A stretch of DNA of 35,316 bases. Source: an uncultured Cellulophaga sp. Lineage in GTDB: Bacteria > Bacteroidota > Bacteroidia > Flavobacteriales > Flavobacteriaceae. Position 1 is the stretch's first letter; each line of letters starts with the position of its first letter. The stretch is taken from contig CANLIE010000031.1 in the NCBI GenBank assembly GCA_947491225.1, positions 1-35,316 of the forward strand. Direction: 5' to 3'. A program made the position numbers and the translations under genes. The notes under the pieces are model-generated. The model searched no databases. It was not told where the DNA came from and worked only from the letters and a program-made list of their open reading frames with translations. Shown here in pieces: positions 5,598 to 14,229 of the stretch.

Positions 5598-5605
5598 TAA
5601 TTTTG
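5598..5605 (+). promoter_or_regulatory. Bacteroidota -7 box for the TSUP permease gene
   Basis: TAATTTTG matches TAnnTTTG and ends 7 bp before the ATG at 5613. The transcript would be leaderless or nearly so. The -33 box is not obvious. Confidence 0.4.
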
Positions 5606-5612
5606 CATAGAT

Positions 5613-5774
5613 ATGGAAGAATGGTATTATTATCCACTTTTAGTTATTGTTGGGTTTATAGTTGGCTTTATAAATACGGTTGCAGGAGGAGGATCTTTAT
5701 TATCTTTACCTGTTCTTATTTTTTTAGGATTACCACCAAGTATAGCCTATGTAACCCATTTACAGTCGATTTAA
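5613..5774 (+). pseudogene. TSUP (TauE/SafE) permease, 5' fragment cut by the integrated element
   Basis: ATG 5613 starts MEEWYYYPLLVIVGF, then the TSUP signature GFINTVAGGGSLLSLPVLIFLGLPPSIA. The first 45 codons are native. The frame then runs into element DNA for 8 further codons and stops at 5774. The native continuation (NGTNRVAIVIQ...) is found 7.86 kb downstream, at 13608-14229. Joining the two halves at the shared AGTATAGC core restores an uninterrupted protein of about 250 residues, normal for TSUP anion/sulfur-compound transporters. The gene is therefore disrupted by integration, reversibly so if the element excises. Confidence 0.9.
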
Positions 5775-7215
5775 AAGAAGGTGCCTTCGGCAATATATAG
5801 TTAAGGTTTATAGTAACTTCCTGCTCGGACACTATTATCTTCTCGGTGATGATTTCTATAATATTATGCTTTTGTTGTTTGCTTAACTTATCCCAATTTT
5901 CATATAACGAACGAGCCTCTTCAATAATATATCCACTAGATTTGAATTGGTCATTTAATGCATAAATCTCTCCTTCCAGTTGTGGAATTTTCATCTTAAG
6001 CTCTTTAATTTCTCTATTAGGCTTATCGTAAAATTCTTTAAATCTATCAGTTTCAATTTGTCCTTTCTCATAAAGGTCAAATAATTTTTGAATTTTTACT
6101 TCTAATTTTTCAATCTTAGATTGTATGATTTTTATCTCTTCTTTTTTATCATTTACAATAGTATGAGTTCCATCGAAATAACGATTCACTTCTTCCTTTG
6201 ATAAAATAAATTCAGTAAGCTGTTCTTTAAAGATTTCTTCAATATCTTCTATCCCAATTTTACGTTTACATTTTTTACAGGTATATTTTGGATTTCCAGA
6301 CGGAATGTACATCTTTCCTCCACACTCACAAAATAGATAACTGGTAAATAAATGGACCTTCTTATTAAGAGGCTGAATTCTGCCTTTTTCTTGTTTGGTA
6401 ATTAATTGGTTTACTTCGTCCCATAATTCATCAGAAACAATTCTAGGAGCTTCATGGATGTACCAATCTTCTTTATCTCGAATTTCTGTTTTCCCTTCCT
6501 TATTGACTTTAGTATAATGCGACCGCCTTATTCCTTTAGCTGTTGGATCCTTAAGTAATCGTTTAATACTAGTTCCTGAAAAAAGACTATTTCTTTTTGT
6601 TCTGTGTCCTTTATCATTTAATATTTTCGCAACAGAACCAAAACGTTGGTGTTCTAAAAAAAGCGTATACATCATTTTTCGAATTGGTGCTTCTTTTTCA
6701 TCAATATCCATTTCTTCTTTTCCAACTCGCTTATATCCATAAGGGATAGCGCCCATCACTTTTCCCATTTTAGCACGTACTTCAACAGAAGATTTTATAC
6801 GTTCTACAATGTTTTCTCGTTCCCACTGGCTCATTGCTGAAATAATGGTATAGAAAAATCTACCTGATGGAGAGCTAGTATCTATAGATTGCCCAAGAGA
6901 AATAAGGTCTGCATTATATTCTTGAAAATGATCTGAAAATTCAAGAAGCTCCTTTACGTTTCTAGCCAATCGAGCAATTTTAGAAAAAATAAGACCTTGA
7001 ATATGTCCACTTTGAATATCACGAAGCATTCGTTGAGCTTCATGATGAGCCATTACACTTTTTCCGCTTACTGCTTCTAAATGATATTCTTCAACAATAT
7101 CCCATTCTTTTAAATCAGCATACATTTTCGCTTTTTCTAAATGATGTTCTGGGCTATCTGAATTCTGCTGTAATTTGGTGGATACTCGAATCCATACTCC
7201 AACTCTTTTTTTCAT
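5716..7215 (-). CDS. Large serine recombinase (integrase) of the element
   Basis: 499 residues. The resolvase catalytic domain (about 1-150) has nucleophile Ser12 in IRVST, plus ARLAR (81-85) and the E helix. The recombinase DNA-binding domain is about 155-275. A zinc ribbon follows with C296, C298, C313 and C316, then a coiled coil (about 355-425). This is the full large-serine-integrase architecture, so it is the likely integrase for the flanking att sites. The last seven codons and the stop (5716-5718) lie in host TSUP DNA left of the core. In the circular form the frame would instead run out of Tyr492 into a 34-residue Lys/Pro-rich tail coded by the element's right end. Start ATG 7215 is preceded by a plausible promoter. 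Confidence 0.93.
   Translation of the reverse strand: MKKRVGVWIRVSTKLQQNSDSPEHHLEKAKMYADLKEWDIVEEYHLEAVSGKSVMAHHEAQRMLRDIQSGHIQGLIFSKIARLARNVKELLEFSDHFQEYNADLISLGQSIDTSSPSGRFFYTIISAMSQWERENIVERIKSSVEVRAKMGKVMGAIPYGYKRVGKEEMDIDEKEAPIRKMMYTLFLEHQRFGSVAKILNDKGHRTKRNSLFSGTSIKRLLKDPTAKGIRRSHYTKVNKEGKTEIRDKEDWYIHEAPRIVSDELWDEVNQLITKQEKGRIQPLNKKVHLFTSYLFCECGGKMYIPSGNPKYTCKKCKRKIGIEDIEEIFKEQLTEFILSKEEVNRYFDGTHTIVNDKKEEIKIIQSKIEKLEVKIQKLFDLYEKGQIETDRFKEFYDKPNREIKELKMKIPQLEGEIYALNDQFKSSGYIIEEARSLYENWDKLSKQQKHNIIEIITEKIIVSEQEVTINLNYILPKAPSFKSTVNGLHRLYLVVILKK
5739..5766. other. attL: left junction of the integrated element
   Basis: Core AGTATAGC (5739-5746) is shared with the right junction (13603-13610). 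To the right, element arm 5747-5766 (CTATGTAACCCATTTACAGT) is an imperfect inverted copy of the arm left of the right core (13583-13602): 14 of 20 positions match, including TGGGT/ACCCA and ACTG/CAGT. To the left is TSUP coding sequence. This is the half-site arrangement expected after serine-integrase recombination between attP and attB. Confidence 0.8.
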
Positions 7216-7240
7216 TTCCTAATACACTTTAAATGAATGC

Positions 7241-7271
7241 CTAAAGTAGACAAAGACACTGTTAAAGTCAA
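7241..7271 (-). promoter_or_regulatory. Possible promoter of the integrase gene
   Basis: On the minus strand, TTG (7269-7271) is followed after 20 bp by TACTTTAG (7241-7248), close to the TTG / TAnnTTTG Bacteroidota pattern but imperfect at the -7 box. It sits 26 bp upstream of the ATG. Confidence 0.35.
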
Positions 7272-7325
7272 GTTTTAATGAAGATCTATAACAGAAATTA
7301 TTCTTTTGATTCAGTTGGTAAATCT

Positions 7326-7352
7326 AAAACTCCAACTAATAGCTGGAGTTTT
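7326..7352 (-). terminator. Terminator of the toxin-antitoxin operon
   Basis: AAAACTCCA (7326-7334) and TGGAGTTTT (7344-7352) form a perfect 9-bp stem with a 9-nt loop. It is T-rich on both strands and lies 2 bp past the toxin stop, so it probably ends the minus-strand TA transcript. Confidence 0.7.
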
Positions 7353-7354
7353 TG

Positions 7355-7654
7355 TTATTTTATTTTTAATCTTTTAGGGTTTTGTCTAGTATCCCAAACA
7401 GTAAGTACTTCAATAGCAGAATCTGTAATTCGATAAACAAGTTTGTAGTGTTTAACAATACGAATTCTGATAGTATCAAACTCCGTTTCTATTCCTGAAT
7501 AAGGAAAAGAAGTCGTTAAGGTCATAATTTCATTAAAAAGGCGGTCTAGTTTTTTAGGGTATGCAGTAGATTTATTTTTATGAATCCAATATTCATAAAT
7601 CGCCATTTTATCTTTTAATGCTCTAAGAGTCCACCTGACTTCTCTTCGAACCAT
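7355..7654 (-). CDS. RelE/ParE superfamily toxin
   Basis: 99 residues with the RelE/ParE fold pattern: N-terminal strand VRWTLRALKDKMAIYEYW, two helices with a PKKLDRLFNEI segment, then C-terminal strands IRIRIVKHYKLVYRI and IEVLTVWDTRQNPKRL. The last motif (V..VWDxRxNP) is typical of the ParE/RelE type II toxins common in Bacteroidota. Relatives act on gyrase (ParE) or on ribosome-bound mRNA (RelE); which applies here cannot be read from the sequence. Its start lies 40 bp inside the 3' end of the upstream antitoxin gene, so the two are translationally linked. It may stabilise the element. Confidence 0.85.
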   Translation of the reverse strand: MVRREVRWTLRALKDKMAIYEYWIHKNKSTAYPKKLDRLFNEIMTLTTSFPYSGIETEFDTIRIRIVKHYKLVYRITDSAIEVLTVWDTRQNPKRLKIK

Positions 7655-7866
7655 TTTGATATTATTTTATCAGATTCTTGCTGATTATAACTATTACCGT
7701 TATCAGCATCATTAATTCCTTCAAAAACTAATTTTTTCTCTTCATCAGAAAATCGATAGATTTCTTCCGTTTCAGATTCAATCGAAATTAAACTTAAGAT
7801 TTCTTTTAAGATTTTTGGATTATTAATGGCATTGACCTTGTTTATAATTAATTCTTTAATACTCAT
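7615..7866 (-). CDS. Antitoxin partner of the RelE/ParE toxin
   Basis: 83 residues, acidic and helical: an N-terminal helical segment (MSIKELIINKVNAI) followed by DEEKKLVFEGINDAD and the toxin-binding-like tail ESDKIISKWFEEK. The same layout (short helical N-terminus, then SxxxWxxE/K-rich tail) is seen in antitoxins paired with Bacteroidota ParE/RelE toxins. It precedes and overlaps the toxin gene. A -7 box and a 14-bp palindrome sit upstream, fitting autorepression. Confidence 0.75.
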   Translation of the reverse strand: MSIKELIINKVNAINNPKILKEILSLISIESETEEIYRFSDEEKKLVFEGINDADNGNSYNQQESDKIISKWFEEKSGGLLEH

Positions 7867-7968: not shown

Positions 7969-8463
7969 TTAATCACGCAGATAATAATGCGTAATTCCCA
8001 AACTAATAGCATCAAACATACCTTGATGATGTTGCTCACTATGACCCAGTCTCCAAGGTCTTGGCAGTACTGATTTTAATTTAGGAAACCAATCTGAAAT
8101 GATTACGGCAATATCATATTTTGTAGTCTTACCAAATTGTTCAAAGACATTTTTGATATCTTCTCTTGAATATTGGAATACATTAATATCTTTACTTTTA
8201 CAGGTCGATACGATATCTTTAATAAGTTTTGTAACCCGTTCTCGTTTTCGTGATTTTTTAGCATTCGGATCTTCCAAAACTACCAAATCTGGTTTTAAGT
8301 CATTGATTAATTTTTCAATAAGAACTTTGCTCTTACGAGAACACATAGGTCGAACACGTACTAATTGATGATGTAATAATTCCTTTGGATTCTTAAAAAT
8401 TGCATAACCAACACCCAATGCATTAGGAAACAAGGCACATACTATTTTTCCGCTCTTTTTCAT
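7969..8463 (-). CDS. RuvC-like (RNase H fold) protein, degenerate active site
   Basis: 164 residues. Strand 1 KIVCALFPNALGVGYAIF aligns with the RuvC start (GIDPGxxxTGYG), but Phe12 replaces the first catalytic Asp. Glu64 in VVLEDP matches the second acidic residue. REDIKNVFEQFGKTTKYDIAVII matches the RuvC segment around VKxAVxGxGxxxKxQV. HHQGMFDAISLGITHY with Asp151 matches the C-terminal D-A-(L/I)-(A/S)-(L/I)-A-x-x-H helix. The fold call is good; nuclease activity is doubtful because only two of four acidic residues are clear. Its ATG overlaps the upstream XRE gene's stop (ATGA at 8460-8463), so the two were co-translated before the IS1595 insertion. Its role is unknown: structure-specific DNA binding, resolution of element intermediates, or defence-like sensing are possible. 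Confidence 0.65.
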   Translation of the reverse strand: MKKSGKIVCALFPNALGVGYAIFKNPKELLHHQLVRVRPMCSRKSKVLIEKLINDLKPDLVVLEDPNAKKSRKRERVTKLIKDIVSTCKSKDINVFQYSREDIKNVFEQFGKTTKYDIAVIISDWFPKLKSVLPRPWRLGHSEQHHQGMFDAISLGITHYYLRD

Positions 8464-10922: not shown

Positions 10923-11075
10923 ATGACTGCAATACTTCCTACAAAATTATCTGACTCACAGATAAAACAGTTTCAAGATTTATATTTTAAAAAGTATGCT
11001 AAGACAATCAGTTTAAAACAAAGCGAAGAATTAGGGCTATATCTAATGCGATTAATTTATGTCGTCTATCGTTAA
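10923..11075 (+). CDS. 50-residue conserved-type small protein upstream of recombinase 2
   Basis: ATG 10923 to TAA 11075, 50 codons. The sequence includes KLSDSQIKQFQDLYFKKY, then AKTISLKQSEELGLYLMRLI and ends VVYR. It has the look of a compact helical protein: an amphipathic helix, a Ser-Leu-Lys turn and a second Leu-rich helix. From memory, similar short (Q/K)DFQxLYKKxFG...LI..VY ORFs sit just ahead of serine recombinases in other mobile elements, including candidate phyla radiation genomes; that needs a search. The codon pattern is coding-like and the hydrophobic spacing is regular. Function unknown; a recombination directionality factor or regulator is one possibility. Confidence 0.55.
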   Translation: MTAILPTKLSDSQIKQFQDLYFKKYAKTISLKQSEELGLYLMRLIYVVYR

Positions 11076-11110
11076 TTTTTCAATTTTCATAACTATGCTA
11101 TAGTAGTAAT

Positions 11111-11207
11111 GCTACACCGTAAAACGACAACTATAAAATATTTAAACCCAACAAGGGGCAAAGGATGATTTACGGTGTAGCGCTTTAAATACATTCCTTT
11201 GTCCCTT
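11111..11207 (+). promoter_or_regulatory. Interlocked two-stem leader (pseudoknot or attenuator) before recombinase 2
   Basis: Stem A: GCTACACCGTAAA (11111-11123) pairs with TTTACGGTGTAGC (11169-11181), 13 perfect bp. Stem B: AAGGGGCAAAGGA (11153-11165) pairs with TCCTTTGTCCCTT (11195-11207), 13 bp with one G-U, followed by a T run to 11210. The order A-B-A'-B' makes an H-type pseudoknot if both form (connecting loops 29, 3 and 13 nt). Alternatively, B:B' is an intrinsic terminator whose formation is hindered when A:A' forms first. It ends 16 nt before the recombinase ATG (11224). Confidence 0.6.
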
Positions 11208-11223
11208 TTTGAGTCTCAAAATT

Positions 11224-13514: not shown

Positions 13515-13602
13515 AATTCACCTAAAGTTTTAGGTTTGATTTTTGGTATTGATTTTTTCGGTATTTTAGCTTTTAGAGTAAAACTGCATTTGGGTGTCAT
13601 TG
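13515..13602. other. Right end of the element between the IS3 copy and attR
   Basis: An 88-bp segment with no gene of its own. On the minus strand it is open in the frame that would extend the integrase (5716-7215) across the circular junction. The encoded tail is basic and repetitive (KIPKKSIPKIKPK), visible in DNA as imperfect tandem GGTxTTGATTTTT units. It also contains the attP arm 13583-13602. Confidence 0.6.
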
Positions 13603-13610
13603 AGTATAGC
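13583..13610. other. attR: right junction of the integrated element
   Basis: Core AGTATAGC (13603-13610) is identical to the left core. Element arm 13583-13602 (ACTGCATTTGGGTGTCATTG) mirrors the left arm. Host TSUP sequence resumes to the right (TAATGGAACTAATAG). The rebuilt attB is itself weakly symmetric around the core (10 of 16 flanking positions match on inversion). Confidence 0.8.
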
Positions 13611-14229
13611 TAATGGAACTAATAGAGTGGCAATTGTTATACAAACTGCTTTAGGTGTAGCTGGTTTTAAAAGTAAAGGAGTAAGTACTTTTCCGTTTAA
13701 TGCTTATTTAGGAATTTCTGCATTAATAGGTGCAATTATTGGCGCCAATCTTGCTGTGGACATTAAAGGAGAGACATTCAATAAAATTTTGGCGATTATA
13801 ATGATAGTAGTTTTGGTCATCATTATATTTAAGCCTAAAATGAATATGGAAGGGCTTCATGAACGTATGACGGGGAAGCATTTATGGATAGGAATTATAG
13901 CTTTCTTTTTTTTTGGAATCTATGGAGGTTTTATTAATGCAGGTTTAGGATTCATAATTATATTATTTTTGCATTATGTAAATCATATGACCTTAGTTAG
14001 AGCTAATGTTACCAAGGTAGCTGTAGTCCTTATCTATACACTATCCGCATTAGCAGTATTTATATATAATGATAAAGTAATTTGGAGAGTAGGTTTAATT
14101 TTGACCATTGGTAATGGAACAGGAGCTTGGTTAGCTAGTAGAGTTTCAGTTAATAAAGGAGATGGATTTATAAAATTCTTTTTAATGATTATGATAGTGG
14201 TTATGGCAATTAAATTATGGTTTTTTTAG
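13608..14229 (+). pseudogene. TSUP (TauE/SafE) permease, 3' fragment
   Basis: About 205 native residues beginning at NGTNRVAIVIQTALGVAGFKSKG, the conserved second part of the TSUP fold, with about six membrane helices and the repeated half motif GIYGGFINAGLGFI. A chance GTG at 13594 gives an open frame of 211 codons, but its first codons are element DNA. On its own it lacks the first helix and the N-terminal GFINTVAGGGS motif, so it is unlikely to function. It belongs with the fragment at 5613-5774. Confidence 0.9.

What the first reader, a model, noticed from the sequence alone, without database searches (positions are those of the whole stretch)
11111..11207. Two interlocked perfect 13-bp stems (A-B-A'-B') in the leader of recombinase 2
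Stem A (11111-11123 with 11169-11181) and stem B (11153-11165 with 11195-11207) overlap in a pseudoknot order. Stem B is followed by T's like a terminator, and the recombinase ATG comes 16 nt later. Two 13-bp stems crossing this way are unlikely by chance. The arrangement suggests a pseudoknot RNA or a terminator/antiterminator pair that senses something (translation of the 50-residue ORF, a protein, a ligand) before the recombinase is made. A DNA role (cruciform or protein-binding repeats) is also possible. I recognise no known RNA family.
Basis: seen in the sequence. Interest (0 to 1): 0.78.

Follow-up and report, generated by a model that had tools for sequence, protein, structure and literature searches.

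The report
Crossed-stem RNA leader before recombinase genes
The two crossing stems are real and belong to a conserved RNA leader, without a match in the Rfam library, that is predicted to start at the transcript's first base, ends in a terminator-like stem, and sits in front of DNA-acting genes (mostly serine recombinases, sometimes Cas12a) in Patescibacteria and some Bacteroidota.

Summary
Observation confirmed, with one correction: stem A is 13 perfect pairs, stem B is 12 Watson-Crick pairs plus one G.U. No shuffle of 5,000 gave two crossing stems of 10 bp or more.

It is a conserved RNA. Of 80 homologous recombinase loci, 32 carry a leader in the order A-B-A'-B'. A and B covary. A model of stem B alone found 46 further loci in Patescibacteria genomes. 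A serine recombinase follows on the same strand in 34, Cas12a in four, a DNA methylase in one, other or unclear genes in six; one I judge a false hit. Leaders of the window and 36 loci scanned have no Rfam match at gathering score.

In most leaders stem A begins where transcription should start, 6 nt after a -10 box. Stem B ends in a U-rich tract in 39 of 48. The window has a third crossing stem, C.

Best reading: a cis-acting transcription attenuator in which the A structure and the B terminator compete. Conserved structure is shown; attenuation and its trigger are inferred. A guide-RNA role is not supported.

The parts
10923..11075 (+). 50-aa ORF found upstream of this recombinase type in several loci; ends before the leader promoter
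   Evidence: homologues in G194 and G234 loci and in L012
11077..11104 (+). sigma-70-type promoter-like site: TTTTCA, 16 nt, TATAGT with TG before it (extended -10)
   Evidence: one of 3 sites, 2.5 expected by chance in this region, so weak alone; the position relative to stem A recurs
11111..11123 (+). stem A, 5' arm; 11111 is the predicted transcription start
   Evidence: start position by analogy
   Evidence: 14 of 1000 shuffles of the partner segment reach it in the window; in 8 of 10 group-1 leaders 14 or fewer of 1000 do
11153..11165 (+). stem B, 5' arm (contains the conserved AAGGGGC)
11169..11181 (+). stem A, 3' arm
11184..11191 (+). stem C, 3' arm (TTTAAATA)
11195..11207 (+). stem B, 3' arm
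11206..11210 (+). U tract (5 U, the first two within stem B)
11111..11210 (+). the whole leader RNA as read here
   Evidence: 94 of 97 aligned positions of 11111-11207 unchanged in L012
11224..12297 (+). serine recombinase 2 (Resolvase and Recombinase domains), 3' part missing at what looks like an IS3-type insertion

Best explanation
The feature is the 5' leader RNA of the recombinase mRNA. Transcription starts at the first base of stem A. As RNA polymerase moves on, A pairs with A' (in the window with C:C' in addition; in most Patescibacteria as a longer hairpin that holds B in its apical part). Then B' is made, and B:B' followed by a U tract can form an intrinsic-terminator-like stem. The A structure and the B stem compete, or combine only at a cost, so the leader decides how many polymerases reach the downstream gene. 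Shown: conserved anatomy, covariation of both stems, promoter geometry, U tract, downstream genes. Inferred: that the promoter is used, that B terminates, that A prevents it, and that some signal shifts the balance. The trigger is unknown.
For: Same order in 32 of 80 recombinase loci. B on 29 leaders: 94.1% of 341 cells paired, 9 of 12 pairs with changes on both sides; 0 of 500 shuffles as high on cells paired and on covariation score, 6 of 500 on the number of such pairs. A, C and B on 17 leaders: 16 of 27 pairs with changes on both sides, 0 of 500 shuffles. Test that did not use A pairing: with the register fixed only by a unique exact TATAAT and by the start of B', 12 of 14 model-found leaders pair 9 of 9; partners from other loci average 5.3 (19 of 182 perfect), shifted starts 2.4 to 3.9. 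Converse test: in 22 model-found leaders whose A start was chosen without looking at the promoter, the hexamer at -12 to -7 is TATAAT in 11 and matches it at 4 or more places in 19; +1 is G or A in 20. U tract: 5 or more U of 8 after the last G/C of B in 39 of 48 model-found leaders, against 22 of 240 control windows. Only 13 to 70 nt lie between B' and the start of the recombinase match in the 28 sequences. Between the window and L012 the RNA is 94/97 identical, the recombinase part 876/1067, its second codon positions 332/356.
Against: No transcript, terminator or regulation has been measured. The simple terminator scan found no site in the window; it allows loops of 3 to 8 nt and B's is 29 nt. 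In group 2 (mostly Patescibacteria) the A hairpin is computed to be more stable than the B stem in 38 of 41; in the window's group the reverse holds in 10 of 10, so the two layouts may not share one default state. Energies ignore pseudoknots. U tracts are short in some leaders. In 48 of 80 homologous recombinase loci no such leader was found (three of the 80 have under 260 nt of upstream sequence), so it is not essential for this recombinase type.
Confidence: 0.58

Rival explanations
1. Trans-acting leader RNA, like the CI RNA of satellite phage P4: the terminated leader accumulates, and its exposed B (or B') pairs with B' (or B) of new transcripts and stops them, giving self-limitation or immunity between copies.
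For: In group 2 B lies inside the long hairpin while B' follows A' directly (0 nt between them in most group-2 leaders), which makes full cis pairing with the hairpin intact sterically hard but pairing in trans easy (inference). P4 precedent: passage seen in PMC4825925.
Against: Seven genomes with two leaders were compared: own stems have 11 to 18 bp; cross-pairing is 9 bp or less in at least one direction in 5 of 7 and in both directions in 3 of 7 (10 to 15 bp in the other directions), so leaders of one cell often do not match each other. No evidence of a stable small RNA.
Confidence: 0.17
2. An independent small RNA with its own promoter and terminator that merely lies next to the recombinase gene.
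For: Promoter, compact fold and U tract make a complete small-RNA unit.
Against: A serine recombinase follows on the same strand in 34 of 46 model-found loci; in 31 of these 34 its open frame (stop to stop) is already open within 30 nt of the leader's end, which leaves little room for another promoter. In L041, L063, L068 and L046 the leader precedes an extra ORF that runs up to the recombinase.
Confidence: 0.12
3. A riboswitch- or protein-sensing RNA that acts on translation (B' hidden or freed just before the start codon), not on transcription.
For: B' lies 13 to 70 nt before the recombinase match; loop sequences between stems are partly conserved in the 17 similar leaders aligned.
Against: The U tract right after B is a transcription feature; the first ATG of Cas12a lies 39 to 106 nt after the leader in L136, L155, L156 and L160, too far for simple masking.
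Confidence: 0.1
4. Guide RNA that directs the recombinase to its target, like the bridge RNA of IS110 elements.
For: A structured RNA sits upstream of a recombinase gene.
Against: The recombinase frame ends inside a tRNA gene both with the leader (16 loci) and without it (21 loci), and recombinases at the same tRNA type have different A stems. The longest shared string between leader and own tRNA region averages 7.25 nt (n = 16), against 7.41 for other loci's regions (n = 240). The leader also precedes Cas12a and methylase genes.
Confidence: 0.02
5. DNA-level element: recombinase or repressor binding repeats, or an invertible segment.
For: Inverted repeats next to a recombinase gene.
Against: Conserved G.U pair (23 of 29, 16 of 17), one-strand U tract, A starting at the predicted +1. 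Inversion was not properly tested: my searches looked for one arrangement of B only.
Confidence: 0.03

Closest known systems
Transcription attenuators with mutually exclusive antiterminator and terminator stems (general description in PMC3369936, abstract start seen in the search listing)
   Same: Leader between promoter and gene, terminator-like last stem with U tract, an earlier structure that can exclude it
   Different: Here the two main stems do not share bases but cross, stem A starts at the predicted first transcribed base, and B is partly conserved in sequence. No sensor is known.
Satellite phage P4 immunity (CI RNA with seqA/seqC; passage in PMC4825925)
   Same: Mobile element, leader complementarity, premature termination of the element's own operon
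   Different: P4 uses a processed trans RNA and two target sites; here one B/B' pair per leader, no evidence of trans action, different structure
Pseudoknot riboswitches (preQ1, SAM-II, fluoride; recalled, no call)
   Same: Crossed stems in a leader with an expression platform
   Different: Stems of about 8 to 22 bp instead of short ones; no compact ligand core shown; no Rfam match at gathering score
IS10 RNA-OUT/RNA-IN and IS110 bridge RNA (recalled, no call)
   Same: RNA control or guidance of a mobile element's enzyme
   Different: Not antisense to the gene; no match to the tRNA target region found

Membership tests
Any Rfam 15 family | Covariance-model score at or above the gathering score | tested here: not met
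   Window, 16 recombinase loci and 20 model-found loci: no match at a leader. Best sub-threshold match at the window leader 27.3 bits against a cut-off of 90, a microRNA model. Leaders before Cas12a were not scanned
Intrinsic-terminator attenuator | Terminator stem followed by a U tract before the gene | tested here: met
   39 of 48 model-found leaders have 5 or more U of 8 after B; control 22 of 240; window 5 of 8
Intrinsic-terminator attenuator | Alternative structure that excludes the terminator | tested here: inconclusive
   A and B cross and differ in computed energy, sign depending on group; exclusion itself needs geometry or probing
Intrinsic-terminator attenuator | Measured termination that responds to a signal | not testable with these tools
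   No transcript data
Pseudoknot RNA | Both crossing stems conserved through compensatory changes | tested here: met
Pseudoknot RNA | Both stems present at the same time | not testable with these tools
   Needs chemical probing or a structure
P4 CI-type immunity RNA | Small RNA from the leader acts in trans through complementarity | tested here: inconclusive
   Leaders within one genome often do not cross-match; no RNA data
Bridge (guide) RNA | Loops match target or element ends | tested here: not met
   Own versus other tRNA regions 7.25 (n = 16) versus 7.41 nt (n = 240); the element's other end was not tested
Inverton / phase switch | Segment between inverted repeats found in both orientations | not tested
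   The searches required one arrangement of B; no population data

The most novel reading that the evidence does not exclude
A new family of crossed-stem attenuator RNA acts as an exchangeable expression switch for enzymes that act on DNA. It is traded between integrases, Cas12a and methylase genes in Patescibacteria and some Bacteroidota, and answers to one common cellular or element-borne signal, or to leader RNA in trans.
Probability: 0.3. Interest if true: 0.88.

Novelty: new variant of a known kind. Interest (0 to 1): 0.74.

Why it matters
To my knowledge (recalled) little is known about how Patescibacteria (CPR) control gene expression or how their integrative elements are held in check. 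Here is a compact RNA with a predictable start, a terminator-like end and strong covariation that precedes recombinases, and in five genomes found here Cas12a (L136, L155, L156, L160, L172), so its function can be tested directly in vitro. If the switch is real, it would be an RNA-level control of large serine recombinases and of Cas12a that matched no Rfam family and appeared in no listing of the paper searches made here (open-licence PMC papers only).

Tried and rejected
Guide RNA for target choice: rejected on the tRNA comparison. DNA binding repeats: disfavoured (G.U, U tract, +1 position); inversion not properly tested. Sensing of the 50-aa ORF: disfavoured, since the promoter is downstream of it. 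Known RNA family: none at gathering score; only sub-threshold matches. Copies elsewhere in the host genome: the DNA search found the window copy plus two 20- to 23-nt matches at E 0.07 and 0.8; the model search of the own genome listed four weak places, not inspected, and missed the window copy itself. For that reason the Bacteroidota survey (1 of 345 genomes; the hit, L148, reads as an ordinary terminator) says nothing about absence. Viral contigs: a close-relative scan gave none, an alignment scan gave two partial recombinases, a leader pattern gave one GC-rich match scoring 12 bits with the model. Plasmid and phage collections gave 2 and 1 records, all under 30% identity, at E 1e-20 or better.

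Weak points: the first 30 leaders (28 of the 80 loci, the window, L005) were partly picked for pairing; two (L070, L081) were added and two (L034, L065) re-registered by hand. The choice of A gave a bonus for a -10 box, so 30 of the 52 rows of the promoter table are partly circular; avoid this. Rows L034 and L081 are out of register in alignment A4. A crude crossing-helix filter without a sequence motif hit 41 of 80 leaders, 30 of 80 antisense strands and 33 of 125 random regions, so by itself it is not specific. A6 holds 17 leaders chosen for similarity. Searches left out six model-found leaders (L112, L118, L133, L136, L144, L147) and L146, whose B stem the script did not find, and did not use the leaders; one search also lost L081. 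One search left out L128, L136, L147 and L156 of 48. The model also hits plain terminators (L145, L120, L148) and L116/L121, which I did not count as leaders. Stem D was not quantified.

Full report
WHAT IS THERE. Stem A (11111-11123/11169-11181) is 13 perfect pairs and stem B (11153-11165/11195-11207) is 12 Watson-Crick pairs plus G11158.U11202; they cross in the order A-B-A'-B'. In 5,000 dinucleotide-preserving shuffles of 11076-11223 none had two crossing helices of 10 bp or more, and the window holds no other crossing pair of 11 bp or more within 200 nt (helices with at most 2 G.U and at least 3 G-C). A third stem C (11139-11146/11184-11191) crosses both, so the order is A-C-B-A'-C'-B'. 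The standard fold, which cannot show crossing stems, forms the B stem with part of A' paired inside its loop.

SURROUNDINGS. The leader lies between a 50-aa ORF (10923-11075) and a serine recombinase (Pfam Resolvase and Recombinase). Further left on the other strand are a Phage_rep_O-like gene, an HTH-like gene (below Pfam's cut-off) and a 164-aa protein without a Pfam match. The same set of genes occurs in loci of G194 and G234 and in L012; L005 shows part of it. In the window an IS1595-like gene sits inside this set and an IS3-like pair of genes cuts the recombinase (names by reading).

RELATIVES BY PROTEIN. A scan of 84,980 species genomes with an alignment of six recombinases returned the best 80 of 445 relatives. 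A search for A-B-A'-B' with a GGG in B marked 28 of 82 leaders, which are the 80 plus the window and L005. Two more were added by hand, and a covariance model of stem B alone added four (L041, L046, L063, L068), in which A of 14 to 22 bp and B of 14 bp cross as expected. Of the 80 loci, 32 thus carry the leader. L005 (recombinase 35-36% identical) was not in the model and scored 27.4 bits. On a recombinase tree of 79 rows (32 with the leader) the leader needs 15 changes (shuffled mean 25), so it is clustered but gained or lost many times; the window's clade mixes records labelled Bacteroidota and Patescibacteria.

TWO LAYOUTS. Group 1 (window, L012, L017, L018, L020, L021, L022, L047, L065, L005) has A-C-B-A'-C'-B'; C stands out against shuffles in 8 of 10 (14 or fewer of 1,000), weakly in L021 (116) and not in L047 (629). 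Group 2, mostly Patescibacteria, has a nested hairpin inside A with B within it and B' directly after A' in most. Among 44 model-found leaders the longest helix nested inside A averages 8.8 bp; its score is 9.2, against 6.1 for partners taken from other loci, and the own partner is the single best in 19 of 44.

COVARIATION. Stem B on 29 leaders: 94.1% of cells paired (shuffles 75.5%), 9 of 12 pairs with changes on both sides, score 0.610 against 0.263 in shuffles and 0.21 or less for slid registers. A, C and B on 17 leaders: 92.4% paired, 16 of 27 pairs with changes on both sides, 0 of 500 shuffles as high on any measure; A 6 of 8, C 4 of 5. These sets were partly chosen for pairing or similarity. 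The cleaner test uses model-found leaders: with the A register fixed only by a unique exact TATAAT (14 of 28 rows) and by the start of B', 12 of 14 pair 9 of 9, with 12 distinct A sequences among the 14; the two misses (L133, L144) are off by one or two bases.

PROMOTER AND END. Aligning 52 leaders on the start of A shows T at -35 and -34 in 38 each, T and G at -15/-14 in 33 and 37, TATAAT at -12 to -7 (first T 43, last T 48 of 52) and G or A at +1 in 48. For 30 of these rows the choice of A had favoured a -10 box; in the other 22 it had not, and there the hexamer is exactly TATAAT in 11 and 4 or more of 6 in 19, with G or A at +1 in 20. The transcript is thus predicted to start with stem A. 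After the last G/C of B, 39 of 48 model-found leaders have 5 or more U in 8, against 22 of 240 control windows.

SELECTION. Window and L012: leader 94 of 97 identical, with the 3 differences in loops between the arms; promoter and spacer 28 of 35; recombinase common part 876 of 1067; codon positions 315/356, 332/356 and 229/355. The leader is more conserved than second codon positions.

WHAT FOLLOWS THE LEADER. The stem-B model found 27 of 379 Patescibacteria genomes and 25 of 383 of one class (partly the same genomes), with strict filters: 46 new loci, none identical to another or to the 80. A serine recombinase follows in 21 of 26 and 13 of 20, including what look like distant subfamilies (L125, L129, L133; and L112, L118). 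Four have Cas12a next (L136, L155, L156, L160), over NCBIfam's cut-off in 4 of 4. L141 has an N6/N4 DNA methylase; L147 and L168 have a short membrane-protein-like ORF with a DNA methylase further on. L143, L164, L165 and L166 are unclear, and L145 reads as a plain terminator. Searched the other way, 11 of 379 genomes have Cas12a; the leader is found before two of these (L172 and the L136 gene), L179 keeps only a 3' half, and in the other eight the model finds none in the fetched loci; in L174, L175 and L178 I did not locate the gene start.

MECHANISM. A can form before B' is made. Computed without pseudoknots, the B state is lower by 8.3 kcal/mol on average in group 1 (10 of 10) and the A state by 7.7 in group 2 (38 of 41). 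A competition between A and the B terminator fits; the trigger is not known. A trans variant as in P4 is possible but is weakened by poor cross-matching of leaders within one genome. Guide and DNA-binding roles are disfavoured.

KNOWN OR NEW. No Rfam match at gathering score for the leaders scanned. Paper searches (listings and abstract starts seen, plus two passages of PMC4825925) showed no such leader. I file it as a new variant of a known kind (cis-acting attenuator-like leader): an RNA family with unusual anatomy and gene company.

Noticed in passing
L136/L181, L155/L182, L156/L183, L160/L184, L172: The same kind of leader precedes Cas12a genes in Patescibacteria; beside Cas12a in L181-L184 lie ORFs that look like cas4 and (in three of the four) cas1 by reading. 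L179 has only the leader's 3' half before Cas12a.
   Followed up: partly
L041, L063, L068, L046: A leader subtype precedes a membrane or secreted-protein-like ORF that runs up to the recombinase; in L068 that ORF is a YceG-like protein (Pfam).
   Followed up: partly
L012-L091, recombinase 3' ends: In 37 of the 75 loci where the recombinase frame has a visible end, it ends inside a tRNA gene on the other strand, a likely attachment site.
   Followed up: partly
window 5600-5720 and 13520-14229: A host gene that looks like a TauE/SafE-type permease (by eye, no search) seems interrupted by the whole insert between these points.
   Followed up: no
window 7969-8463: A 164-aa protein kept with this recombinase in G194, G234 and L012 looks RuvC/RNase H-like by eye, with the usual first acidic residue apparently replaced; no Pfam match.
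   Followed up: no
window 5716-7866: A second serine recombinase (Pfam) and two short ORFs that look by eye like a RelE/ParE-type toxin and its partner; outside the stretches that align with the Polaribacter locus L012.
   Followed up: no
L047 157-271: LOOT RNA (RF03000) about 3 kb before a leader-bearing recombinase in a contig labelled SAR86.
   Followed up: no
L064 5130-5431: Group I intron (RF00028) just above its cut-off, overlapping the 3' part of the recombinase open frame.
   Followed up: no
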